A stretch of DNA of 35,028 bases from Candidatus Thorarchaeota archaeon (GTDB lineage: Archaea > Asgardarchaeota > Thorarchaeia > Thorarchaeales > Thorarchaeaceae). Under the pieces are notes generated by a model that worked only from the letters and a program-made list of their open reading frames with translations, made no database searches and was not told the DNA's origin. The stretch's first letter is position 1; each line of letters begins with the position of its first letter. Made by a program: the position numbers and the translations under genes. Positions 1-35,028 of the stretch are shown here, one piece after another. The DNA lies in NCBI GenBank assembly GCA_030612005.1, contig JAUWOU010000020.1:1-35028 (forward strand), read 5' to 3'.

Positions 1-1083
1 AGACTGTCTTGGAAACCAGTCCAAGAAGCGAAACCGGAGGGTCTGTCCTCGATAGGGAGAGTCCGGAGCTCGTTCACGCCCAGTGATTCCAGGAGGGGTC
101 TTGATGTAGAGGATTATCTCGTTTTCCCTCTCAGGGTCTTCCTTGAACCAGTACCCCTGTCCTGTCGAGTTCTCAGTTGAAGCCGCAAACTCCATTGTGC
201 TCTGTTTGAAGACCGGTTGGACGAAAGGGAACCCGTTTGACCTCCAGTCCTGAACCAGAGATATTGCTGAGTTGTGTGTTGTCAACCAAGTACTCGAACT
301 CATCAGGTCGCGTACCCGTCTCCTCTGGACACTCCGGAATGAAGAGCTCTGTTTCGATAATTCGAGAAGAGAGATGTCCAGAGCCCTCCGGACCTGCTTA
401 CAGGCAGTAAGGGCATAGTGATAGTATGACCCCTTCTTCTTCCCACCAGAATCCTTGACCTTTCGAACAAGGTCTGCAGGGATCCTCTTCAGCGACAGCA
501 GTCGTTTCAGCTGTTCCCAGTCACTGGACAGTATCTCAAGGAGCGCATTGACCAGCTTTCTCCGGGTGTAGTCAGAGAGGATTATCCTGGCTGCGGTTTC
601 AAGGACATTACGAAACATTCTTTCATATACAAGCTGGCCAAACCGATTGTCACGCGTCCAATCGAGAGAGGACTCTTCCCGCAGAACCACATAACCCTGT
701 CCTTTGGAAGTTTCCAGCTTCTCTCCAATCTGGGAGGCTTGCGCCTGAGACGAGTAGACCTCCGAGAGAACAAGATTCACTGCCTCGATGTACCTTCCAA
801 AGTGCAGTCCCAGTGTCTGGAGATCAATTTCAGAGCACTTCCTTCCAGACACCAGCTTGGTTACCACTGTTCGTGACTGGAGAGATCGTTTCTTCTTTCT
901 CAGGAAGGCAGGGTCCGGTTTCTTTCCTAGTCCCTTTCTTGCAACCTGTCTATGATACGAATTCAGTGCAAACTTCTGAACAAGGTAGGTCGATGAAACG
1001 GAATAATAATATCCATCCATTGTTTCTTGGTTCGAACCATCGGTCTTCCCCACGCGGGGACGGCGCCGCGTTCTCTCTTTCAT
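1..1083 (-). CDS. Large TnpB/Cas12-like protein, N-terminal part (cut by left window edge)
   Basis: The reading frame is open from the start to base 1, so 361 codons are visible and the C-terminal RuvC domain would lie outside. I place the start at the ATG at 1083, because GAGGT (1096-1092) sits 8 nt upstream of it; an in-frame ATG at 1098 is the alternative. Assignment rests on homology to the protein at the right end of the window. The two are nearly collinear: FRFLDW lies at about residue 356-361 counted from the 1098 ATG, against 359-364 in the right copy. They share blocks such as ASTENSTGQGYWF, ERENEI, PPGI and DSPY, and about 60% of the last 60 visible residues match by eye. The right copy carries the complete RuvC/zinc-finger signature, so this is inferred to be an RNA-guided-nuclease-type TnpB relative with a long N-terminal region. 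It is the last gene of a minus-strand cluster and has its own TATA-like boxes at 1221-1250. Catalytic competence cannot be judged from the visible part. Confidence 0.75.
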   Translation of the reverse strand, partial: MKERTRRRPRVGKTDGSNQETMDGYYYSVSSTYLVQKFALNSYHRQVARKGLGKKPDPAFLRKKKRSLQSRTVVTKLVSGRKCSEIDLQTLGLHFGRYIEAVNLVLSEVYSSQAQASQIGEKLETSKGQGYVVLREESSLDWTRDNRFGQLVYERMFRNVLETAARIILSDYTRRKLVNALLEILSSDWEQLKRLLSLKRIPADLVRKVKDSGGKKKGSYYHYALTACKQVRRALDISLLELSKQSSSFRSVQRRRVRDLMSSSTWLTTHNSAISLVQDWRSNGFPFVQPVFKQSTMEFAASTENSTGQGYWFKEDPERENEIILYIKTPPGITGRERAPDSPYRGQTLRFRFLDWFPRQS

Positions 1084-1220
1084 CAACCTAAACCTCATTA
1101 TCCGGTCTTTCTTGATGTATTTAAGGTCATACAAAAACGGAATAATAATAACCAACAGTAGGATTTAAAGTCCACATATCAGAATCTAAAGCCGTCTTGT
1201 TTGGTTTCAATAACCGAAAA

Positions 1221-1250
1221 AATATATAAGTGAAATGCGGTTTATATTTT
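1221..1250 (-). promoter_or_regulatory. Two candidate TATA boxes upstream of the left TnpB-like gene
   Basis: Read on the minus strand, AAAATATAAA (1250-1241) and CTTATATATT (1230-1221) are good archaeal TATA-like boxes. They would place transcription starts near 1215 or 1195, leaving a leader of about 100 nt before the TnpB-like gene. A 14-bp palindrome (1258-1271) lies just upstream of the first box. The boxes are seen in the sequence; promoter function is inferred. Confidence 0.4.
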
Positions 1251-1257
1251 GGTGTTA

Positions 1258-1271
1258 TGTAGGCCCCTACA
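1258..1271. promoter_or_regulatory. 14-bp palindrome TGTAGGCCCCTACA, putative operator
   Basis: Perfect 6-bp arms (TGTAGG/CCTACA) flank a 2-bp centre. It lies between the 232-residue gene and the TnpB-like gene, 7 bp upstream of a minus-strand TATA-like box. Related copies occur at 2019-2032, 2040-2053 and 2101-2114, so it looks like the binding site of a dimeric regulator. Confidence 0.45.
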
Positions 1272-1291
1272 GTACAAGAAAGGTTCTAACA

Positions 1292-1990
1292 CTACTCTCT
1301 GAGTTCACTCTCAATCTGATTTCTGACACCTATTAAATTGAGACGGCTCATAATGTAAGGGTCAGTAATTTTGTTTATATCAAATCCAGCTTTCTCAATA
1401 CGACCCAGTTCTCTTGATGCTAGGTCTCCCATCTGTCTTCTTGAATAAAGACTCTTGATACGTGTTCTGAGAATTGTGCTCCTCAACATGAGCTGATCAA
1501 GAAACTCCTTCTTATTCAAGTCAGGGTTTTGATGTAGAAAATCTACAAGAGAAATCTGTTCAACGTTGGACTCTTCAACTTCCCTCAATTTGGTCCAGAC
1601 TGCCACATCTTCAATAGTCGGAAGAAACCAAGTATCGTCATCTATAGTTACACGATATATTACCTCTAATCTATCTAGCTCTGAAACTTTGACCTCACCT
1701 CGAAAGCGCTCTTTTCCAAAGACTGCGGCTGCGACTCTTCTTGCAGCACGTAGATGAGAGTCCGGTGGTCCTCGAAGTGGTTCTATCAATGGATCCCAGT
1801 CCAGTATTCCCTCAAGAAATACAAGTTTCTCATCCAAGTGGCTAATCTTCCACATTGTCCGCAGGAATATCTCTTCACCACCCGGTAGCTCCGCTAGTAA
1901 CGTACTAACATATACGATTTCAGGCCTCTGAACCTCACCAGACTTGATCTGTTCAACAGTGGGTCTTACAATGATTGATTGTTTTGGCAT
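1292..1990 (-). CDS. Unknown 232-residue protein of the left accessory cluster
   Basis: I do not recognise this family. It is a soluble, charged protein with no membrane segment or signal peptide. The middle is mixed in character, with an RAARRVAAAVFGKERF stretch near residues 81-96. The C-terminal third is predicted helical and rich in Arg, Lys, Glu and Leu (about 150-232), which would suit a nucleic-acid or protein contact. The ATG at 1990 is preceded by GGAG about 11 nt upstream. It sits between the RadA-like gene and the TnpB-like gene, all on the minus strand. The 119-bp gap upstream contains three copies of the TGTAGACCTCTACA-type palindrome and A/T boxes, so it probably has its own regulated promoter. 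It could be the regulator that binds those palindromes, but no clear helix-turn-helix is visible and this remains a guess. Confidence 0.6.
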   Translation of the reverse strand: MPKQSIIVRPTVEQIKSGEVQRPEIVYVSTLLAELPGGEEIFLRTMWKISHLDEKLVFLEGILDWDPLIEPLRGPPDSHLRAARRVAAAVFGKERFRGEVKVSELDRLEVIYRVTIDDDTWFLPTIEDVAVWTKLREVEESNVEQISLVDFLHQNPDLNKKEFLDQLMLRSTILRTRIKSLYSRRQMGDLASRELGRIEKAGFDINKITDPYIMSRLNLIGVRNQIESELRE

Positions 1991-2018
1991 GAGTTCCGTT
2001 TCTCCACACCCAAAATAT

Positions 2019-2032
2019 AGTAGACCCCTTCA
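2019..2032. promoter_or_regulatory. Degenerate copy of the 14-bp palindrome (AGTAGACCCCTTCA)
   Basis: Matches TGTAGACCTCTACA at 11 of 14 positions. It lies directly upstream, on the minus strand, of the A/T box TATATTTT and about 30 bp from the ATG at 1990. Its centre is 21 bp, about two helical turns, from the copy at 2040-2053, which would put two bound dimers on the same face of the DNA. Confidence 0.4.
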
Positions 2033-2039
2033 TTATATC

Positions 2040-2053
2040 TGTAGTCCTCTACG
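2040..2053. promoter_or_regulatory. Imperfect copy of the 14-bp palindrome (TGTAGTCCTCTACG)
   Basis: GTAG and CTAC arms are retained around TCCT. It is adjacent to the minus-strand A/T box AGATATAATG (2039-2030). Second of the spaced copies in front of the 232-residue gene. Confidence 0.42.
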
Positions 2054-2078
2054 ATATTCATCTCTCTGTATTCTTGAT

Positions 2079-2093
2079 ATGGGGCCGCCCCAT
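2079..2093. promoter_or_regulatory. 15-bp perfect palindrome ATGGGGC-C-GCCCCAT
   Basis: Perfect 7-bp arms around one central C, between two copies of the TGTAG-type palindrome in the gap between the RadA-like gene and the 232-residue gene. As RNA it would form only a short tight hairpin and no T-run follows it, so an operator is more likely than a terminator. It does not resemble the TGTAG motif, so a different factor would bind. Confidence 0.35.
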
Positions 2094-2100
2094 TTATTCG

Positions 2101-2114
2101 TGTAGACCTCTACA
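2101..2114. promoter_or_regulatory. 14-bp perfect palindrome TGTAGACCTCTACA
   Basis: Perfect 6-bp arms (TGTAGA/TCTACA) around CC. It overlaps the stop codon and last codon of the RadA-like gene (stop at 2112-2110). Best copy of a four-member set in the left cluster. Confidence 0.45.
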
Positions 2115-2934
2115 GTATCTTCTTCCTGCTGGCTCTAAGCCTCCGGAGGTATCGCTTGACCCTGCGTTCTTGAAGCTTCATAGCCTTCTCATCAGGGTAC
2201 AGACCTCCATGACCAAGAGAAACCTTCCACTCCCCGTCTGGGAAAGAGATCGAGTCCTCAAGGACTAGTCTTCTCTCATGTTCGCCTTTGGGCTCGATCA
2301 TCATCCTGAAGTTAGTCAGATCGGAGATTGCCCGACTGCTTCTGGACTCCCTGTTCTGTTCGGTAGTCCCGCTCACAGTGACCGAAGTGCGACTTGTGAA
2401 TAAGAGTGTGGTATCAGTCTTTGTCTGTATTTTGTGGAGAACCTTGACAAGGTCATACATGTGAGGAAAACTTCTGAGAATGGACTTGGTTTCTGCAAGG
2501 GAGTCAAGTACAATAAGACAGAACCCTTCTGTATTCGATCGTCGCCACAGGTCATCGGTAAGACCCTCAACACTCATCTCGCCAAGAGACCGCACAACGT
2601 GAAACTTCCTGAGGACAGATTCAGGATCAAACCCCATTCGAAAGGCAATCTCTCTCACTGTGTTCTCTCTAAAAGTCCCCTCTGAATCATACCAGAAGAC
2701 ATCACCCATGGAGTGGTTGATGACACCGATCTGTGTACACATCAAAGACTTGCCAGCCCATTGTGGACCGAAAATCTCAACAAATGACCCAGCAAGAATT
2801 CCTCCCTCTATGTGACTGTCAAACTTAGGAATTCCAGTCCTGAATCTTGGAGCGAGGGCTTCGAGCTTCTCAATATCAGCTCCTGTGAGGAATCCCTTCA
2901 GGGGTGGTTCCTTTTCCTTGTCAGGATCTTTCAT
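2110..2934 (-). CDS. RadA/RecA-family ATPase paralogue of the accessory cluster
   Basis: A 274-residue RecA-fold ATPase of the archaeal RadA/RadB/Rad51 group. Walker A is GPQWAGKS (residues 56-63). The RadA-like stretch WYDSEGTFRE (81-90) is followed by an IAFRMGFDPESVL block typical of RadA. Walker B is LIVLDS (140-145), and a TLLFTSRTSVTVSG segment follows where RadA has its DNA-binding loop region. It lacks the N-terminal helix-hairpin-helix domain of full RadA, like RadB, but has a basic C-terminal tail (about 256-274, RRVKRYLRRLRASRKK). Its ATG immediately follows the TGA of the 1422-residue gene, and GGAGAG lies in the end of that gene, so the two are almost certainly translationally coupled and may work as partners. 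Strand exchange, ATP-driven targeting or remodelling are all possible. The fold is clear; the substrate is not. Confidence 0.85.
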   Translation of the reverse strand: MKDPDKEKEPPLKGFLTGADIEKLEALAPRFRTGIPKFDSHIEGGILAGSFVEIFGPQWAGKSLMCTQIGVINHSMGDVFWYDSEGTFRENTVREIAFRMGFDPESVLRKFHVVRSLGEMSVEGLTDDLWRRSNTEGFCLIVLDSLAETKSILRSFPHMYDLVKVLHKIQTKTDTTLLFTSRTSVTVSGTTEQNRESRSSRAISDLTNFRMMIEPKGEHERRLVLEDSISFPDGEWKVSLGHGGLYPDEKAMKLQERRVKRYLRRLRASRKKIL

Positions 2935-5900
2935 TCATGCCTCTCTCCTATTCCGAAGGAGTTCTGAGGTGACTCTTCCCTCAAGTGACCTCACTCTTGG
3001 ACCGTACCTGATGTCTTCCAGTGGGTCCCATGTCATGCCTTGGAATGGAAGTCCAGTCCGATAGGGCGACTGCAGGATTGCCACTGCCTCCTGTGAGGAG
3101 TGATACTGAACGGAGAACCCTGTCTCTCCCTCCCCATTCCTTTTCTTGTGCCTTGGAGTCAGTTCTATGAACCCCCTCTCGATGTCTCCTCCAACCAGAC
3201 ACCTGACTCGTGTGACACGGTTCACCTGACTCTGGATAACTCCCAGTTGTCCAAACAATCTCTTGGCCAATGAAGTGTCCCTTCTTGGTAGTCGTTGACC
3301 ACTGGGGATTTTTGGATAGATCATTCCTAGACCCAATATCTTGAGATACCTCAGTCGTGCTGGTGCTCCACGGTACCTTGTCCCAAACCGGGTCGCACCC
3401 CTCATCTCCCAGCGCACCTTATTGAAGTCAACATCAAGTGAGTGTGTTGCTACCCCTTCACCTTGATAGAGAACATCCATGCCCGAGTAGTTGGCTATCA
3501 TTAGCGGTTGGACCTTACCTTGAGTGAGTGCTTGGCCAGCAAGGGCATCCAGCTCATCCAATGGTATCACCGTGTCAGAGCTCAGGTATCGCAAAGACCG
3601 AAACCTCTCCTGTCTGATGCACCCTGCAATCACACCTCTATCATATGGACTGCCCTCAAAGAGGTACCACTCATATTTGCCAGGATTCTTCTTCTCAAAC
3701 CCCACTGTGATCCCGTATCTCACATCTGTGAGAGGAACTGTTGTTGAACGAACCATGTTCCGAAAGGACTGGGTCCGAATAGACATGAACCTGTAAAGGG
3801 CATCCATGTCAAACCCTGAGTCAGGGAGTGACGCAGTGGCTCTTTTCGCACCAAGCTGCATGGAAACCCATGGACGAACATCATCCCAGAGAGAGTCGAG
3901 CTCGTTCTGTGAGAAGTTATGGGACTGCAAAAAATATGCCATTAACAGAATGATATAGTTACCATAACGTAACAGGAGATCTGCATCCTGGGTCTGCAAC
4001 GTCTCAAGAGTTGTCCTCATGTTTCTTGGAAGTCTCCAATTGTCAAGGTGATTGCGACTCCATGCGGTCCTATACCAGATGTCCTTCGTATAGTGATGAT
4101 TCCTCAGGAAACTGATGAGGGTATTCGTGAATCCCTGTTGTTCCTCTGATTCTACAGCCTTGATGAGGACCTGCACAAACTCTCTGAAGAAGTCATGGAA
4201 GGGACTGTACTCGGGAATGTGGTCCAACAGGACTCCTCGTACGTCCTGTAGTCGTTTCAGCTCAGTTGACCCAGCCTTGACCGGATCATAATGTTCGAAC
4301 ACAAGGTCAGACTCAGGAGGTGGTAGTGGAACGGAATCCAGAGGTCTGACCTCCAGTCTTGGAGTCCAGTACTTTCTCTTGGTGTCAATCGCTTTGATTG
4401 ATTCTTCCTGACACATGTCCTTGTCAAAGAACACTCTAGACAATATTCCTTGGTAATTGCGATCCCGGTCCTTATCCAGCAGCTCTTCTCTGGTGACCTT
4501 GATTTCGCCTGATTCCCTCTCTGAGTTGTTTACACCCAAGTCCACAGATGGCAAACGATCCTCTAGGAAAGGAAAGAGTTCCATTGTCATCTGTCTTGAG
4601 AACTCATCTATCCTTAGTTTTTTCAACCACCGATTTGTCTTGGAGTTCCTCTTCAATCGACGCAACATGTTCTTGTCCAGCTCTGTCAGGTCTATTGACC
4701 TGAAGCGTCGCGACCAACCAATGAGGGGGATGATCGGCCTCGTTTCCAACAATACGTCTTCATCGTTTCTGTGAGGAACATGTACTATGCACCTTGCGTA
4801 GTCACAGACAGGAACCTCACTGCCCCCTGGATGAGGAGGATAGGGGAGGTTGAGAACCATCTCGTCGATATAGGGTAACAAAGGAGAGTCGTGTCGTAGC
4901 GGTCGAAACCGGTGATGCTTGTAGACTCCAGAGGATGTGGCAAGGGATATAGGAGAACCAAACCACAACGTACACTTTGCAGTGGATGTGAGGGCGGATG
5001 CAATATGAGTCACTAGAGTGTCTGTGAGCCCTCTGAGGGTTTGGGGTTCCAATGCCTTGGCAGTTTCAGTTCCGCTGACTATGACCATCTCGTAAGGTTC
5101 CAGTCTCTGAGTCAATGCTTCGACCGAGGGGACAGGTACTCCTTTGAAGAGTGTCGCATTTGTTTCATCAGATAGGTCGATAAACTCGATTTCTCGGTAG
5201 AAGAGTCTGGTCTCTTCACCATGGTAGTGCAATCGAAGGATCAATGGTCTGTGAGCCTCATCACTGTAGTCACCAGCCAGATCGAGCCATGCAATCTCTC
5301 TGCAGTCAAATCTCTTGGCAAGGTCACGAGCATACTCAAGACCATGAAAGTTTCTGGCTATCAATGCTGCACTGTCCCCGGGTGAACCACGGGTGGCTAC
5401 CGACTCATAAAGGACAAAATGGTTTGAATCGTCAGTCCTATGTTCAAAGGGATTACTTGCAGATTTCTCAGTCAGTGGTACTGGGAGGGGGAACAGGTCA
5501 TCCAGAGCGATGGTGGATGGTACCTCGAAGGGCAATGTGACAATGACCAGACGGCTGTGCTTGTTGTTGACAGGGTGGAAGAGCGATCTTGGAAACTCTA
5601 CAGTCGAACCAGTCGCCTGATCCAACAGGTACGAGAGGTCCTCTCGTATCTTGTGATATACTGCATGAATGAAGGGAGTCAGGACCTGTCGTGTCAGTGA
5701 AGGTGGATCTGTCCCGTCAATGAGAATGACTCCACGGATGTTGATTAGTGGTGGTCTCAGGTCCTCTCGGACCGACCCGTGATACTCTTCAAGCACCCCA
5801 GAACCATAAGAATCGACCTGTCGTTGTTCTCTGGGTGATGGTGAGTTCCTGAGCATCTCACTCCACTCAGAGTCTGTGAGCTGTCTCCTCTTCAGTACAA

Positions 5901-7203
5901 AGTCCACTGAAACAGGTCCCTTCTTGGAGTCGCTCTTTCCCTTCACACCAAGGTTGAAGGCTGACTTCGTCTTCAGGTCCAGAGAGAGGGCTGGAAACCA
6001 GCTGCCCTGACCCAAGTTGTTCCTCGTCAGACTTGGTGAAGTTTGTCTTCGAACGAAGAGGTTGTGGTCGACCTTTCCTCTCCCACCAAACACTGGCACC
6101 TCTGTGGCATGAATGAACCCGGATGTGTCTTCCGCGATATAGTCACCCCCATAAATGATGCCTCTGAGTGAGGATGGGCTACAAAGCCCCCAGGACGCCC
6201 TCCTATGAAGTCTGGTTCCTACCCTGCCCACGACTTTGTTGATTCTCTCACCGACCTTGGTTGTATCAGTATCAGTGAGATAGGTCTTCAATCGATCTCT
6301 GATCTTCCTGTCAGATATAATCTTCAACAGGACTGGTTTCTTAAGGGGGTAGCCCAGACCTGACCGAATCCTCTCTGTCACTCTCTCTGGATATGACGAC
6401 CTGTCTCCATGAGTTCCCATCATCCCTTGGATAAGCTCATCAAGAATCATGTCAGCCCGCTCCAGGAAGTCATCTGTCCCCAATCTGCTCTTACGTGGTC
6501 GTATCGCACCACCCACATAGAGCCTGTCAAGAAAGGGTCTGAGTCTGTATATCAGCAGGTCTATGTAGTGCCGTGCAGCTCCAACTGGGACTGAGTGAAT
6601 GAAGCACTGTCGACACAGTTCAACAAGATGCCCTCTCAGCAGGTCAACAAAGTCTAACTCAGGGAGGAAAGGATGTGTAATGACCACTGTTGTCTTTCCC
6701 TTGGTCTTCCCGTAGACATACGTTGTCTTGGTTGCCTTCTTGCCATCTTTTCGAACATACTCTTCTTGGATCATCTCAGGTCTAGGGAAGGGATATCGAG
6801 TCATGGCTAGAAACCTGAGCCGTGCACCAGCAATATTTTCCAACATGTTGAGTGGACCAATGGTTCCCTCTCTCCAGGTGTAGACACGTTTCACTTCGGT
6901 GTTACCATAGCGAGCAGTGGTGTTAAAGACCATCTCATGATGATTTTTTCTTAGGTGTCTTTCGACATTGCATATGGGAATGAAGTAGTCATCCCTACCC
7001 TCAACCCGGCATGAATCACTCTCTTCCCTAGCCTCGAGCCATCTCTCTAACGCGTGATGGTATGGTTTGTTATAGACCTCAAATCCTCTCTGGATCAAGG
7101 GGATGAGTGAACTCATAGTCAACTGTTTGGCATACCTGAGTGCTCTCTCAGGATGCCTGATAACTCCCTTTGGAATGAACACAACAACAAGATGGACTGA
7201 CAC
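2935..7203 (-). CDS. Giant 1422-residue protein of unknown function, accessory cluster
   Basis: I do not recognise this family. It begins at a GTG (7203) with no strong ribosome binding site and runs uninterrupted to a TGA that abuts the ATG of the RadA-like ATPase. No signal peptide or convincing membrane segment is visible. The N-terminal 250 residues are basic and helical, with an HHEMVFNT...YGN...KR block near residues 89-105. The middle (about 450-870) looks like mixed alpha/beta domains with hydrophobic strands, for example GVILIDGTDPP and EMVIVSGTE. The C-terminal third includes a helical region and ends in a basic, aromatic-rich stretch. No HNH, HUH, DDE, Walker or RuvC motif is obvious, and cysteines are few. 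A short gene fragment at 32382-32729 is homologous to its N-terminus and also lies beside a TnpB-like gene. Pairing with a RecA-type ATPase suggests a DNA-processing role, which is inference. Confidence 0.7.
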   Translation of the reverse strand: MSVHLVVVFIPKGVIRHPERALRYAKQLTMSSLIPLIQRGFEVYNKPYHHALERWLEAREESDSCRVEGRDDYFIPICNVERHLRKNHHEMVFNTTARYGNTEVKRVYTWREGTIGPLNMLENIAGARLRFLAMTRYPFPRPEMIQEEYVRKDGKKATKTTYVYGKTKGKTTVVITHPFLPELDFVDLLRGHLVELCRQCFIHSVPVGAARHYIDLLIYRLRPFLDRLYVGGAIRPRKSRLGTDDFLERADMILDELIQGMMGTHGDRSSYPERVTERIRSGLGYPLKKPVLLKIISDRKIRDRLKTYLTDTDTTKVGERINKVVGRVGTRLHRRASWGLCSPSSLRGIIYGGDYIAEDTSGFIHATEVPVFGGRGKVDHNLFVRRQTSPSLTRNNLGQGSWFPALSLDLKTKSAFNLGVKGKSDSKKGPVSVDFVLKRRQLTDSEWSEMLRNSPSPREQRQVDSYGSGVLEEYHGSVREDLRPPLINIRGVILIDGTDPPSLTRQVLTPFIHAVYHKIREDLSYLLDQATGSTVEFPRSLFHPVNNKHSRLVIVTLPFEVPSTIALDDLFPLPVPLTEKSASNPFEHRTDDSNHFVLYESVATRGSPGDSAALIARNFHGLEYARDLAKRFDCREIAWLDLAGDYSDEAHRPLILRLHYHGEETRLFYREIEFIDLSDETNATLFKGVPVPSVEALTQRLEPYEMVIVSGTETAKALEPQTLRGLTDTLVTHIASALTSTAKCTLWFGSPISLATSSGVYKHHRFRPLRHDSPLLPYIDEMVLNLPYPPHPGGSEVPVCDYARCIVHVPHRNDEDVLLETRPIIPLIGWSRRFRSIDLTELDKNMLRRLKRNSKTNRWLKKLRIDEFSRQMTMELFPFLEDRLPSVDLGVNNSERESGEIKVTREELLDKDRDRNYQGILSRVFFDKDMCQEESIKAIDTKRKYWTPRLEVRPLDSVPLPPPESDLVFEHYDPVKAGSTELKRLQDVRGVLLDHIPEYSPFHDFFREFVQVLIKAVESEEQQGFTNTLISFLRNHHYTKDIWYRTAWSRNHLDNWRLPRNMRTTLETLQTQDADLLLRYGNYIILLMAYFLQSHNFSQNELDSLWDDVRPWVSMQLGAKRATASLPDSGFDMDALYRFMSIRTQSFRNMVRSTTVPLTDVRYGITVGFEKKNPGKYEWYLFEGSPYDRGVIAGCIRQERFRSLRYLSSDTVIPLDELDALAGQALTQGKVQPLMIANYSGMDVLYQGEGVATHSLDVDFNKVRWEMRGATRFGTRYRGAPARLRYLKILGLGMIYPKIPSGQRLPRRDTSLAKRLFGQLGVIQSQVNRVTRVRCLVGGDIERGFIELTPRHKKRNGEGETGFSVQYHSSQEAVAILQSPYRTGLPFQGMTWDPLEDIRYGPRVRSLEGRVTSELLRNRREA

Positions 7204-7464
7204 TGTATCAATCTTTTCTATTCTCTCAACACATAGGGATTTCTGCTCTTGTTTGTCTTAATTGTGCAGCTCGAAGTCCATATACACGGCCTGAGAAGGA
7301 AGCGATGAGAGCCATGAGGTCAGTGACCAACTGTTCTAAAGCAGAAGAGCTTACCAGTTTTATCCCACCGATGGATGGACCTGACACACACACCTAGTCT
7401 GAGTGCGGCTTGTGATACTGAAAACATGGCAATTTATCAAAGGACTAGCTAATCAATGTCCAGC
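7204..7464. other. Intergenic junction between left accessory block and core genome
   Basis: No gene is visible in these 261 bp. The part next to the giant gene should contain its promoter, but no strong TATA box and no copy of the TGTAG palindrome is present. The left edge of the core genome, and so the right boundary of the accessory block, probably falls somewhere here. I see no terminal inverted repeat, target duplication or tRNA that would fix it. Confidence 0.4.
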
Positions 7465-7845
7465 TCAGATTTTACCCTTCAGTGTCTTTGCTGCCCGATC
7501 GATGTCAACATAAACACCATCTGGTTGTGCATCTGGCGCACACCAAGCAATGACCCATTTTTCACCCTCGATCTTTGCTAAGATAAGGACACCATTTCCC
7601 TGGACGTTGCGAGCCACTAGACTCTCAGGAGTTGATCTCATTGTGGAATAACGAACGTTATTCTGGGTGACTGCAGGGCTGCGAGATTTTACTGCGGACA
7701 TTAGAGTACCTGCATCCGCTGTAAGATCCCAATTATTACTTTGCCACAGGACTTGCCCACCTTCAGTTATTACGCCAAAAGCTTGCACCATATTGCCTGA
7801 ACTATTGTATGCCATTGTGTATGCATCCATTACAGGATCGCTCAT
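7465..7845 (-). CDS. Profilin-like actin-binding protein
   Basis: A 126-residue single-domain protein with the order of elements expected of profilin: an N-terminal helix (about 3-16), a strand pair around FGVITEGGQVLWQS (23-36) followed by WDL and a helix. Then come NNVRYSTMRSTPESLVAR, GNGVLILAKIEGEKWVIAWC, and a C-terminal helix (about 110-124). This parallels the profilin pattern of a Y-x-x-I-R strand, a glycine turn, a hydrophobic strand pair and a terminal helix. Profilins bind monomeric actin, and Asgard versions are known to act on actin. The poly-proline site cannot be judged by eye. GGGGT lies about 9 nt before the ATG. It is transcribed away from the DUF167 gene and is the first core gene beside the accessory block. 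A Roadblock/LC7 protein is the main alternative. Confidence 0.65.
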   Translation of the reverse strand: MSDPVMDAYTMAYNSSGNMVQAFGVITEGGQVLWQSNNWDLTADAGTLMSAVKSRSPAVTQNNVRYSTMRSTPESLVARNVQGNGVLILAKIEGEKWVIAWCAPDAQPDGVYVDIDRAAKTLKGKI

Positions 7846-32331: not shown

Positions 32332-32381
32332 ACTCAATAGAACATTGGGGAGTGTGCACTAAGAGCATCCGTCGCTGGGAT

Positions 32382-32729
32382 TCACGAGGTTTCATCCAGT
32401 GTATCAAAACTTCGTGTTCTCTTGGTTTCAACATTACCATAGGGCACAGACGTATTGAGAACTATCTTGTGATGACTGCGGTGGATATTTCGCTCAGTCT
32501 TCTGAAAGTGAGATGCAGCTGATCTTCCTTCTCTCTTTGAGTTCTGGTAATTCTTTTGCCCCTCTCTCAGAATCTCGCTGATACTTTTGCATCCCCGTCC
32601 CCCCTCATACAGATGTTTTGTGGTCTTGGTGGTCCTAGTCTTCGCTAGATACGCTGTAGTAGACAGCCCAAGTTGTAATAATCTGGTGAGAACCTTCCCA
32701 GGGTGGAGAGGGAATCTTGTGGTCTTCAT
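32382..32729 (-). pseudogene. Gene fragment homologous to the N-terminus of the 1422-residue accessory protein
   Basis: A 115-codon open frame. Its residues from about 79 align with residues 81-105 of the giant protein: ER-x4-HHK-IVLNT-x4-YGN-x3-KR against ER-x4-HHE-MVFNT-x4-YGN-x3-KR. An HPGKVLTRLLQ stretch near the start parallels HPERALRYAKQ. Similarity ends within about 10 residues of the shared KR, and the frame stops at 32382, just before core sequence. It is therefore most likely the 5' remnant of a second copy, truncated at the block boundary. A short functional domain protein is the alternative. It is divergent from the right-hand TnpB-like gene, unlike the left block where all genes are co-directional. 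Confidence 0.7.
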
Positions 32730-32740
32730 GGTAGCTTTTT

Positions 32741-32751
32741 ACCAAATTGGT
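32741..32751. promoter_or_regulatory. Palindrome ACCAAATTGGT upstream of the gene fragment
   Basis: Perfect 5-bp arms around one base, immediately upstream of the minus-strand ATG at 32729, and partly overlapped by a second inverted repeat TGGTA(N6)TACCA (32729-32744). The set could be an operator in the divergent promoter region. It does not match the TGTAG motif of the left block. Confidence 0.3.
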
Positions 32752-32859
32752 CGTTCTTTATATGCAATATGTAGAGTAATTTCCATTTTGTATTTTAGAA
32801 CTAGAGGCCAGATTCGTAGAAAATAGGAGATTAAATAGTATTGACAACTACTAATCTTG

Positions 32860-32883
32860 TTAAATATGGTATGTGCTTAAATA
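32860..32883 (+). promoter_or_regulatory. Candidate TATA boxes of the right TnpB-like gene
   Basis: TTAAATAT (32860-32867) and CTTAAATA (32876-32883) lie 51 and 35 nt before the ATG at 32911. GGAG at 32905-32908 is the ribosome binding site, which favours the first box because it leaves room for a short leader. An inverted repeat AGATTA(N18)TAATCT (32828-32857) lies just upstream. Confidence 0.35.
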
Positions 32884-32910
32884 GCATCTCAAAGACTGGA
32901 TTTTGGAGAA

Positions 32911-35028
32911 ATGACGGTGACACAAGAAATCCAGTGCCAGTCCTGGAAGCAAGGGCAGAAGGTTAAACCAAAGCCAAAGCATAACTCAATGACTGGCAAA
33001 TATGGTATGAGTTCATCGCAGACAAAATATCTTGTCGAGTCGTTCACTCTCAATTCTGTTGAGAGAGTCGTTTCACGGAATGGGAGAGGAAGAGTTCCCC
33101 ACCCAGCCTATAGAAATGATAGAGAGGGAATAACTAGTCTTTCATCCATCGTAAGAGGAACAGGAAAGAAGGTAAAGGAAGTAGACCTTAAGACCCTCAC
33201 TCTTCACTTTGGTAAATACGTGAACGCTGTGAATCTCCTTCTCTCACGGATATACTCTAATCCTAAACGAGTAGAACAACTTGGTAAGGGACTATCAGAG
33301 TATAGAGGAAGAGCATACACTCGACTTATGAAAGAGAGAAACCTCTGCTATGAACACAATGAAGACATCAAGAAATTGGTCTATGGAAGACTACATAGAA
33401 ATGTCCTTGAACAGATTGGCAGAATGCTCCTTGCAGACTGGACTCGAAGACAGTTGTTCGTAGCAGCTTTGAAGTACCTTGAGACCTCCCCTGAGGATAC
33501 ACTAGTTCTTCTTAGAAGGAAGAGAATACCTTCCTTCTTGATCAGAAAGGTTCGGGACTCCTGTGACTCCACCAAGAACAATGGCGCAGGGTATCATTAT
33601 GCTATGGGTGTCCTTAGACAAGTTCGACTCGCTATTGACAGACATGTTCTTGAAACTATGGAGATCAAGATAGGTTGGAGAGCAAGACAACGGAAGAAGG
33701 TTGCATCCCTGCTGAAGAATAACTCCGCAGAGTATCAGCAAGTCTATGATATTGTAACAAAACTAGTCAAGCACTGGGTGAAGAAAGGCTATCCTTTTTC
33801 CACCCCCCAGCTCAGAAGTTATAGTCTTGATTTCTCTGCGAGTACCGAAAACTCTACAGGGCAGGGGTATTGGTTCACTCTGGACTCAGAGAGAGAGAAC
33901 GAGATACTCATACATCTCAAGCTCCCTCCGGGAATTGATGGAAAAGGACATGATGATTCTCCCTACAAGGAAAAGACCATCACCTTTCGTTTCCTTGACT
34001 GGTTGCCCAAAGCTGCCAGCAATGACAGAAGGAAGGCAGAAACTGCCAAAGAGAAACGTGAGAAGAATCAGGCCGAGAGCCTGACATTTCGGGCTGCAAA
34101 GTTCGAGGATATGCACATCCAACTCATGAACACCATCCAGTTCCAACATACAGCTCATAGACTTGCTAGGTTGAAACAAAGAATAGGTACAGACCCTGAG
34201 GAGATTATCAGACTCCAAGAGAAGGTCAAAGCCCTGAAGAGGTCACGAAGGAGCGCTCCACCACGACTTCTCTTGAGGGGGCATAGAGTGACTCTCCAGA
34301 TCCCCTTCCTCTCTCCAAATGGATATGTAAGTGATAATATCTTTGGAGAACGAGAGTACTCCACTAAGGCTGGAGCTGATAGGGGGCTTCGTGCTCCTGT
34401 GGCTCTGTCTGTGGAGAAGGAACAGTCCTTTGAGGACCTTCTCATTACAGTGGGTCATCTGGTGGAGAAGCGAGAGAAAATCAGAAAGCATGCGTACACA
34501 CTCACCTCGGAAGTTACATTGAAGAAGAACAACTGGGACAAGAAACGGCCAGGACAGTCATACCCAACGCAGGTATATCGTCAAGATAGACAGATAGCTG
34601 CGTCGTGGAAAAAGATTCGTCGTCTTGACCATGAGATTGCCCGACAGGTGGCCTCTAGGACTGTATGGTTCTGTGAGGAGCACCGGGTGAAGAGGTTGTT
34701 CTTCGAGGACCTGAGGAGCTTTCAGGCTCACGCCGGGTCAAGGGACCTGTCGTATAACCTGAGCTCAAATCTATGGGGAAAGATCATCTACACTGTCCGC
34801 TACATGCGGGAGTCGCTGGGGCACAGTAAGTATAGTGTGTGGACAGTGAATCCGCGATTCACCTCTCAGACCTGTCATGTGTGTGGACAGCGAGGCGTTC
34901 GAGTGAAAGATGAGACCTCTACCACCGAGAGAAAGGGTGGGGAGTACTTCTACTGCGAGAAATGCGAAGAGCACTTCCATGCTGACATCAACGCAGCACG
35001 GAACATAATTCATGTTCAAGATTCCAGT
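32911..35028 (+). CDS. Large TnpB/Cas12-like RuvC nuclease (cut by right window edge)
   Basis: Open for 706 codons to the last base, so only the C-terminal end is missing. All catalytic elements of the TnpB/Cas12 RuvC domain are present: D490 in AGADRG (RuvC-I), E599 in RLFFEDL (RuvC-II) and D692 in HADINAARNI (RuvC-III). The four-cysteine finger C655/C658/C682/C685 lies in TSQTCHVCG...YFYCEKC. Family members are guide-RNA-directed DNA nucleases. The protein is unusual in having about 490 residues before RuvC-I, while IS605-type TnpB of about 400 residues has roughly half that, so its size is nearer to Cas12 or Fanzor proteins. The ATG has GGAG 2 nt upstream. No TnpA gene or CRISPR array is in view, and any guide RNA that overlaps the 3' end would be outside. 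The left-end gene is a paralogue. Confidence 0.93.
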   Translation, partial: MTVTQEIQCQSWKQGQKVKPKPKHNSMTGKYGMSSSQTKYLVESFTLNSVERVVSRNGRGRVPHPAYRNDREGITSLSSIVRGTGKKVKEVDLKTLTLHFGKYVNAVNLLLSRIYSNPKRVEQLGKGLSEYRGRAYTRLMKERNLCYEHNEDIKKLVYGRLHRNVLEQIGRMLLADWTRRQLFVAALKYLETSPEDTLVLLRRKRIPSFLIRKVRDSCDSTKNNGAGYHYAMGVLRQVRLAIDRHVLETMEIKIGWRARQRKKVASLLKNNSAEYQQVYDIVTKLVKHWVKKGYPFSTPQLRSYSLDFSASTENSTGQGYWFTLDSERENEILIHLKLPPGIDGKGHDDSPYKEKTITFRFLDWLPKAASNDRRKAETAKEKREKNQAESLTFRAAKFEDMHIQLMNTIQFQHTAHRLARLKQRIGTDPEEIIRLQEKVKALKRSRRSAPPRLLLRGHRVTLQIPFLSPNGYVSDNIFGEREYSTKAGADRGLRAPVALSVEKEQSFEDLLITVGHLVEKREKIRKHAYTLTSEVTLKKNNWDKKRPGQSYPTQVYRQDRQIAASWKKIRRLDHEIARQVASRTVWFCEEHRVKRLFFEDLRSFQAHAGSRDLSYNLSSNLWGKIIYTVRYMRESLGHSKYSVWTVNPRFTSQTCHVCGQRGVRVKDETSTTERKGGEYFYCEKCEEHFHADINAARNIIHVQDSS

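What the first reader, a model, noticed from the sequence alone, without database searches (positions are those of the whole stretch)
1..7203. Candidate undescribed module: giant unknown protein + RadA-like ATPase + unknown protein + large TnpB/Cas12-like protein
Four minus-strand genes form one block that stands out from the neighbouring core genes. A 1422-residue protein with no recognisable family abuts a RadA-type ATPase (TGA directly followed by ATG), then a 232-residue unknown and a TnpB-like protein of Cas12-like size. A RecA-fold ATPase tied to an RuvC nuclease family and a giant partner could be a guided DNA-targeting, transposition or defence system. Gene content and adjacency are seen; the joint function is inference.
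Basis: partly seen in the sequence, partly recalled or inferred. Interest (0 to 1): 0.85.

Follow-up and report, generated by a model that had tools for sequence, protein, structure and literature searches.

The report
Giant-protein TnpB mobile elements of Thorarchaeota
The four genes are one end of a previously undescribed family of selfish DNA elements in Asgard archaea: a CRISPR-like guided protein (TnpB) is almost always paired with a giant nuclease/recombinase-like protein, and in one branch the guided protein has lost its own cutting residue while its guide RNAs match the tRNA and rRNA genes in which or beside which the elements sit.

Summary
The block is real. It is a mobile element of a multi-copy Thorarchaeota family (about 25 giant-gene places in this genome), not an isolated operon. 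The giant protein has no Pfam or PDB sequence relative. It carries motifs of a RecB/Cas4-type PD-(D/E)XK nuclease, invariant in 57/57 homologues, and a RecA/RAD51-like fold. TnpB is its conserved partner (61 of 66 evaluable giants); RadA is optional (8 of 76). Two branches exist. (I) Intact TnpB, often with an IS607-type serine recombinase; the window belongs here and keeps a tnpA remnant. (II) TnpB that lost the RuvC-II glutamate in every copy, followed by a covarying guide-RNA scaffold. Branch II guides match tRNA genes far above chance (15/88 at >=13/14 nt; 0.25 expected), plus 16S rRNA. Sister genomes give empty sites for an intact-TnpB element in an OGG glycosylase gene and for two dead-TnpB elements at tRNA-Tyr. 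The gene beside the element is recoded away from the guide. Best reading: RNA-guided homing elements, with the giant supplying cleavage or recombination. Mobility, pairing and guide matches are shown; the biochemistry is inferred. I found no earlier description in the papers searched.

The parts
1..1155 (-). TnpB-like RNA-guided nuclease gene (5' part; rest lost at contig end), intact-TnpB branch
   Evidence: full copies L009:4585-6741 and L010:3754-5940 carry D-E-D; L009 copy has the TNB domain
1292..1990 (-). P232, 232-aa protein of unknown fold with an invariant PDxHxR-type motif; relatives precede or overlap the giant start in some dead-TnpB loci
2110..2934 (-). RadA/Rad51-like ATPase with intact Walker A (GPQWAGKS); optional accessory of this subtype
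2935..7203 (-). giant protein, 1422 aa; helical N-terminus, PD-(D/E)XK nuclease signature, RecA-like fold, unknown C-terminus
5806..6219 (-). PD-(D/E)XK nuclease core of the giant (residues 329-466: GxxxH, GxxD, D/ExK, QxxxY)
   Evidence: key residues invariant in 57/57 homologues
4714..5436 (-). RecA/RAD51-paralogue-like fold of the giant (about residues 590-830, read from the secondary structure), Walker A degenerate
   Evidence: AlphaFold model pLDDT 87.8, Foldseek E 1.2e-4
7250..7427 (-). remnant of an IS607-type tnpA (MerR-HTH + serine recombinase)
   Evidence: tblastn with intact tnpA of L012 and L028
7428..7466 (.). approximate left end of the element, abutting the stop codon of the profilin-like gene 7465-7845
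   Evidence: similarity with L012, L028, L032 ends here
32349..32414 (+). second element in the same window: tnpA remnant
   Evidence: weak
32382..32729 (-). second element: fragment of a giant gene
32911..35028 (+). second element: TnpB-like gene with intact D-E-D, divergent from the giant fragment

Best explanation
The block is the left part of a mobile element, LE - (tnpA remnant) - giant - RadA-like - P232 - TnpB - (RE off the contig), in a family that has spread through Thorarchaeota. TnpB is proposed to use a guide RNA encoded at its 3' end and running into the flank, which recognises the uninterrupted target in other chromosomes. The giant is proposed to act at the recognised site: its RecB-type nuclease cuts or resects, and its RecA-like part (helped here by the RadA-like ATPase) drives recombination that copies the element in. 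In branch I, TnpB itself could cut, and an IS607-type serine recombinase is or was present. In branch II, TnpB lost a catalytic residue, so cutting would fall to the giant, and the guides home to tRNA/rRNA genes. The target gene next to the element is recoded or replaced, so that the host survives and the guide no longer fits. Shown: mobility, near-obligate pairing, conserved nuclease motif, RuvC-II loss in branch II, covarying scaffold, guide matches, empty sites, recoded targets. Inferred: RNA expression, guided binding, cleavage by the giant, recombination mechanism.
For: Mobility: about 25 giant places in the genome; sharp common ends between copies and an internal-deletion copy; empty site of the L023 element contiguous in sister genomes, e.g. 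G208 91% over 801 nt; empty sites at tRNA-Tyr for L107 and L142. Pairing: 61/66 giants with TnpB, 56 of these divergent. Nuclease: G329, H333, D379, D/E409, K411, Q462, Y466 in 57/57. Fold. RuvC-II Glu lost in all short TnpBs. Scaffold: 17/23 pairs with double changes, 92.4% of cells paired against 45-49% when slid, 0/500 shuffles; 49 copies in this genome. Guides: 15/88 match tRNA at >=13/14 against 0.25 shuffled; 6/39 at >=14/15, none in 585 shuffles; 16S-matching guides L017, L073, L145 (L145 by eye). Recoding: OGG 3' end differs mostly synonymously from the native end; tRNA-Tyr acceptor CGGGACG or CGGGATG in sisters without the element, CGGAGTG/CGGAGCG with matching 3' changes beside the elements.
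Against: No expression or biochemistry. The PD-(D/E)XK call rests on motifs and predicted strand order: hhalign against three Cas4 sequences found nothing and Pfam/PDB profiles are silent. Most scaffold-following guides (73/88) have no assigned tRNA target; many lie in about 500-bp stand-alone RNA genes. Intact-TnpB guides showed no tRNA preference and may be plain flanking DNA. The recoding argument rests on few loci (one OGG, two tRNA-Tyr). The window's own right end and guide are off the contig. MAG contigs break at these repeats.
Confidence: 0.62

Rival explanations
1. An ordinary IS607-family transposon that moves by its serine recombinase; the giant, RadA and P232 are cargo (for example counter-defence or repair), and the dead TnpB is a relic or repressor.
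For: Intact MerR-resolvase TnpA in several intact-TnpB elements and a remnant in the window; insertion without detectable terminal inverted repeat, as in IS607 (PMC6188088).
Against: The giant is kept with TnpB in 61/66 loci with invariant catalytic residues, more than expected of cargo; tnpA is absent from 37/37 dead-TnpB loci (Fisher p 2e-5), yet those are inserted at tRNA-Tyr with empty sites in sisters.
Confidence: 0.2
2. Branch II is integrated site-specifically at tRNA/rRNA genes by an unseen integrase; guide-like sequences are attachment-site duplications, not guides.
For: L023 and L090 have long (68 bp, about 60 bp) target copies at both ends; tRNA 3' ends are classic integrase sites.
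Against: In L144, L094, L185, L107, L142, L026 and L233 the match stops after 14-19 nt and the flank then is not target; matches start right after a covarying RNA scaffold; no integrase gene was recognised.
Confidence: 0.1
3. A TldR-like RNA-guided repressor or defence system using dead TnpB.
For: Dead RuvC; many stand-alone guide RNAs.
Against: Targets are essential tRNA/rRNA genes beside the element, and the resident tRNA-Tyr copies are recoded away from the guide; no PADLOC hit; mobile multi-copy behaviour.
Confidence: 0.08

Closest known systems
IS607-family transposons (serine recombinase TnpA + TnpB/guide RNA)
   Same: TnpB; MerR-resolvase TnpA in part of branch I; guide-like sequence starting at the right end; no obvious terminal inverted repeats
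   Different: a nearly obligate 1400-1950 aa giant partner, plus RadA and P232 in the window subtype; tnpA degraded in the window and absent from branch II
Type V-K CAST (Cas12k, TnsB, TnsC, TniQ)
   Same: nuclease-dead TnpB-lineage effector; guides to tRNA genes as attachment sites (PMC11406308)
   Different: no Tn7-type TnsB, TnsC or TniQ recognised in the element proteins scanned, and no CRISPR array seen; single RNA at the element end; giant nuclease/RecA-like protein instead
TldR nuclease-dead TnpB regulators
   Same: TnpB-derived, inactivated RuvC, guide RNA
   Different: paired with a giant nuclease-motif protein in a mobile element; targets are tRNA/rRNA genes next to the element
Homing endonuclease genes
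   Same: element sits at its own target and the resident target is altered so that it is not recognised
   Different: recognition would be by RNA; the element is 7-9 kb with recombination-like proteins
Aloposons of Heimdallarchaeum (PMC8813620)
   Same: Asgard mobile elements with very large proteins near tRNA genes
   Different: tandem 3000-6000 aa proteins and a MinD/ParA-like ATPase; the main text does not mention TnpB

Membership tests
IS607-family transposon | MerR-HTH serine recombinase TnpA | tested here: inconclusive
   intact in L012, L028 and others; only a remnant at window 7250-7427; absent in 37/37 dead-TnpB loci
IS607-family transposon | TnpB with RuvC D-E-D and zinc domain | tested here: met
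   branch I copies, (not met in branch II: Glu lost)
IS607-family transposon | insertion without terminal inverted repeat or short target duplication | tested here: met
   L023 empty site joins to within one nucleotide, apart from the 68-bp recoded gene end
Type V-K CAST | nuclease-inactive TnpB-lineage effector | tested here: met
   branch II only
Type V-K CAST | TnsB/TnsC/TniQ proteins | tested here: inconclusive
   none recognised among the element proteins scanned; whole genomes were not searched for them
Type V-K CAST | guide RNA to a tRNA attachment site beside the element | tested here: met
   sequence matches only, branch II
TldR regulator | dead TnpB without nuclease partner, repressing a host gene | tested here: not met
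   nuclease-motif giant adjacent; repression itself not testable
RecB/Cas4 PD-(D/E)XK nuclease | ordered motifs GxxxH, GxxD, (D/E)xK, QxxxY | tested here: met
RecB/Cas4 PD-(D/E)XK nuclease | detectable profile homology | tested here: not met
   (thin 3-sequence Cas4 profile)
Aloposon | tandem 3000-6000 aa Otus/Ephialtes proteins | tested here: not met
   one giant of about 1400-1950 aa per element

The most novel reading that the evidence does not exclude
Branch II is a categorically new RNA-guided DNA insertion system: a nuclease-dead TnpB with many dispersed guide RNAs directs a giant PD-(D/E)XK/RecA-fold protein to tRNA and rRNA genes and inserts the element by cutting plus homologous recombination, while supplying a recoded copy of the disrupted gene. 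No transposase or CRISPR array is involved. It would have arisen in Asgard archaea independently of CAST.
Probability: 0.45. Interest if true: 0.96.

Novelty: new variant of a known kind. Interest (0 to 1): 0.9.

Why it matters
It would add an independent natural solution to RNA-guided insertion of several kilobases of DNA at chosen sites, built from TnpB and a giant nuclease/recombinase-like protein instead of CRISPR and Tn7 parts. It also describes an abundant, unannotated mobile element of Asgard archaea, and gives a natural example of target recoding as immunity to a guided element, which is directly testable.

Tried and rejected
Defence module: no PADLOC match, mobile behaviour. Isolated operon: rejected by the multi-copy data. 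RadA as core partner: rejected by counts (8/76). Classic short target duplications or terminal inverted repeats: not found. Guides as plain flank in branch II: rejected where the match stops at 14-19 nt. Cas4 homology by hhalign: negative, so the nuclease claim is by motif only. Giant C-terminus by Foldseek: meaningless hits. The first genome-contig scan with a single sequence found nothing; the alignment worked. The left end of the mini RNA genes could not be fixed.

Full report
1. Observation. TGA is followed directly by ATG between giant and RadA. Most of the block is richer in G+C than the neighbouring genes. TnpB is cut by the contig end. The window is contig C218 of a 3.64-Mb, 271-contig genome. 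Named relatives in public genomes are Candidatus Thorarchaeota and a few Heimdallarchaeota.

2. It is a multi-copy element. The giant matches about 25 separate places in the same genome (35 matches), and 37 of 228 genomes of the phylum, 34 of them in the same family. Two near-identical four-gene copies are L009 and L010. DNA similarity between copies stops sharply just after tnpB: a few to about 41 nt past the stop, ending ..AACGGT in the intact group; about 137 nt past the stop, ending ..AGGTYA in the dead group. L032 is a 93%-identical copy of the L012 element lacking about 6.6 kb inside. The left end of the window copy lies at about 7465, at the stop codon of a profilin-like gene.

3. Gene content. 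Of 76 distinct giants, 66 can be evaluated for their TnpB side; 61 have TnpB, of which 56 are divergent from the giant and 5 are collinear like the window. RadA is adjacent in 8, P232 in 11. An IS607-type TnpA (MerR-HTH + resolvase), intact or as a remnant, is found in 10 of 24 intact-TnpB loci and in 0 of 37 dead ones. The window keeps a tnpA remnant.

4. TnpB. Long TnpBs (about 700-760 aa) keep Asp, Glu, Asp. Every short TnpB (about 545-670 aa) that covers the site has the RuvC-II Glu replaced, nearly always by Gly, so the RuvC site is incomplete.

5. The giant. RecB/Cas4-type motif residues are invariant in 57/57 homologues of both branches. AlphaFold of residues 1-860 is confident (pLDDT 87.8, pTM 0.87) and places these motifs in the expected helix/strand order. 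Foldseek finds a RAD51-paralogue/RecA fold (E 1.2e-4). The C-terminus has no meaningful match. The nuclease assignment has no profile support and is a motif inference.

6. Guide RNA. The segment after dead tnpB folds into four helices with 17 of 23 pairs showing double changes; the slid and shuffled controls are far lower. A covariance model finds 49 copies in this genome and copies in 36 of 47 family genomes. In the own-genome copies examined, about 17 are roughly 500-bp stand-alone units carrying a 97-108 aa ORF equal to the dTnpB tail; others have dTnpB without a complete giant.

7. Targets. The 14-16 nt after the scaffold match tRNA genes in 15 of 88 distinct guides (>=13/14; shuffled 0.25; flank controls +150: 4, +300: 1). 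Others match 16S rRNA (L017 in this genome, L073, L145). Several matched genes sit at the element itself: tRNA-Tyr (L144), tRNA-Asp (L094, L074), tRNA-Gly (L090), 16S 3' end (L017, L073).

8. Empty sites and recoding. Joining the flanks of the L023 element (intact TnpB) gives a sequence contiguous in at least a dozen sister genomes. The host gene is an OGG glycosylase. The element's left end carries a replacement 3' end that differs from the native one mostly at synonymous positions. L107 interrupts tRNA-Tyr at the guide match (CGGGACGTAGCT then element), and a second, complete tRNA-Tyr follows the right end; its acceptor stem is changed on both strands. L142 in another species has the same guide and a differently changed acceptor stem; its two flanks lie together around tRNA-Tyr in sister G198. 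Sisters without an element there keep CGGGACG (13/14 to the guide) or CGGGATG (12/14). In this genome and in G209 a scaffold with guide GTGAGCTACGTTCCG lies just upstream of tRNA-Tyr. In L073 the guide-matching 16S site is split by an intron-like insert. These patterns are expected if an unaltered target is harmful once the guide is present, but they are few.

9. Mechanism and limits. Most likely RNA-guided homing: recognition by TnpB and guide, cutting by TnpB or, when TnpB is dead, by the giant, then recombination. Cutting and recombination are inferred. CAST V-K is the closest functional parallel (tRNA homing, dead effector; PMC11406308), but no CAST transposition gene was recognised in the elements. 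I found no earlier description in the open literature searched, which lacks most subscription journals and preprint servers.

Noticed in passing
window 32349-35028: A second, degraded element of the same family lies at the right edge: tnpA remnant, giant fragment (115 aa) and a near-complete intact-type TnpB.
   Followed up: partly
L208, L209, L211-L217, L219, L220, L223, L224, L226-L229 (own genome): About 17 stand-alone ~500-bp units: a conserved start, a 97-108 aa ORF equal to the dTnpB tail, then the guide-RNA scaffold with a unique guide. Targets of most guides unknown.
   Followed up: partly
L073 left flank (16S rRNA 3' end): The guide-matching site in 16S rRNA is interrupted by a ~31-nt intron-like insertion; the guide reads the uninterrupted sequence.
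   Followed up: no
L267 (own contig C203, tRNA-Tyr): Scaffold RNA with a tRNA-Tyr-directed guide directly upstream of the tRNA-Tyr gene, whose D-arm carries an extra intron-like insert at the target.
   Followed up: partly
window about 1259-1270, 2040-2053, 2102-2113: Repeated palindrome-like GTAGxSSxCTAC motifs in the gaps between TnpB, P232 and RadA; possible operator sites.
   Followed up: no
L079 left flank: A second copy of the guide-RNA scaffold (89% identical over 74 bp) on the giant side of the element, suggesting tandem accretion at one site.
   Followed up: no
L215, L217, L220, L227, L228 upstream regions: Repeats of TGTAAGA on the left side resemble the right-end motif TGTAAGATTTAGGTTA; possible end-binding sites.
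   Followed up: partly
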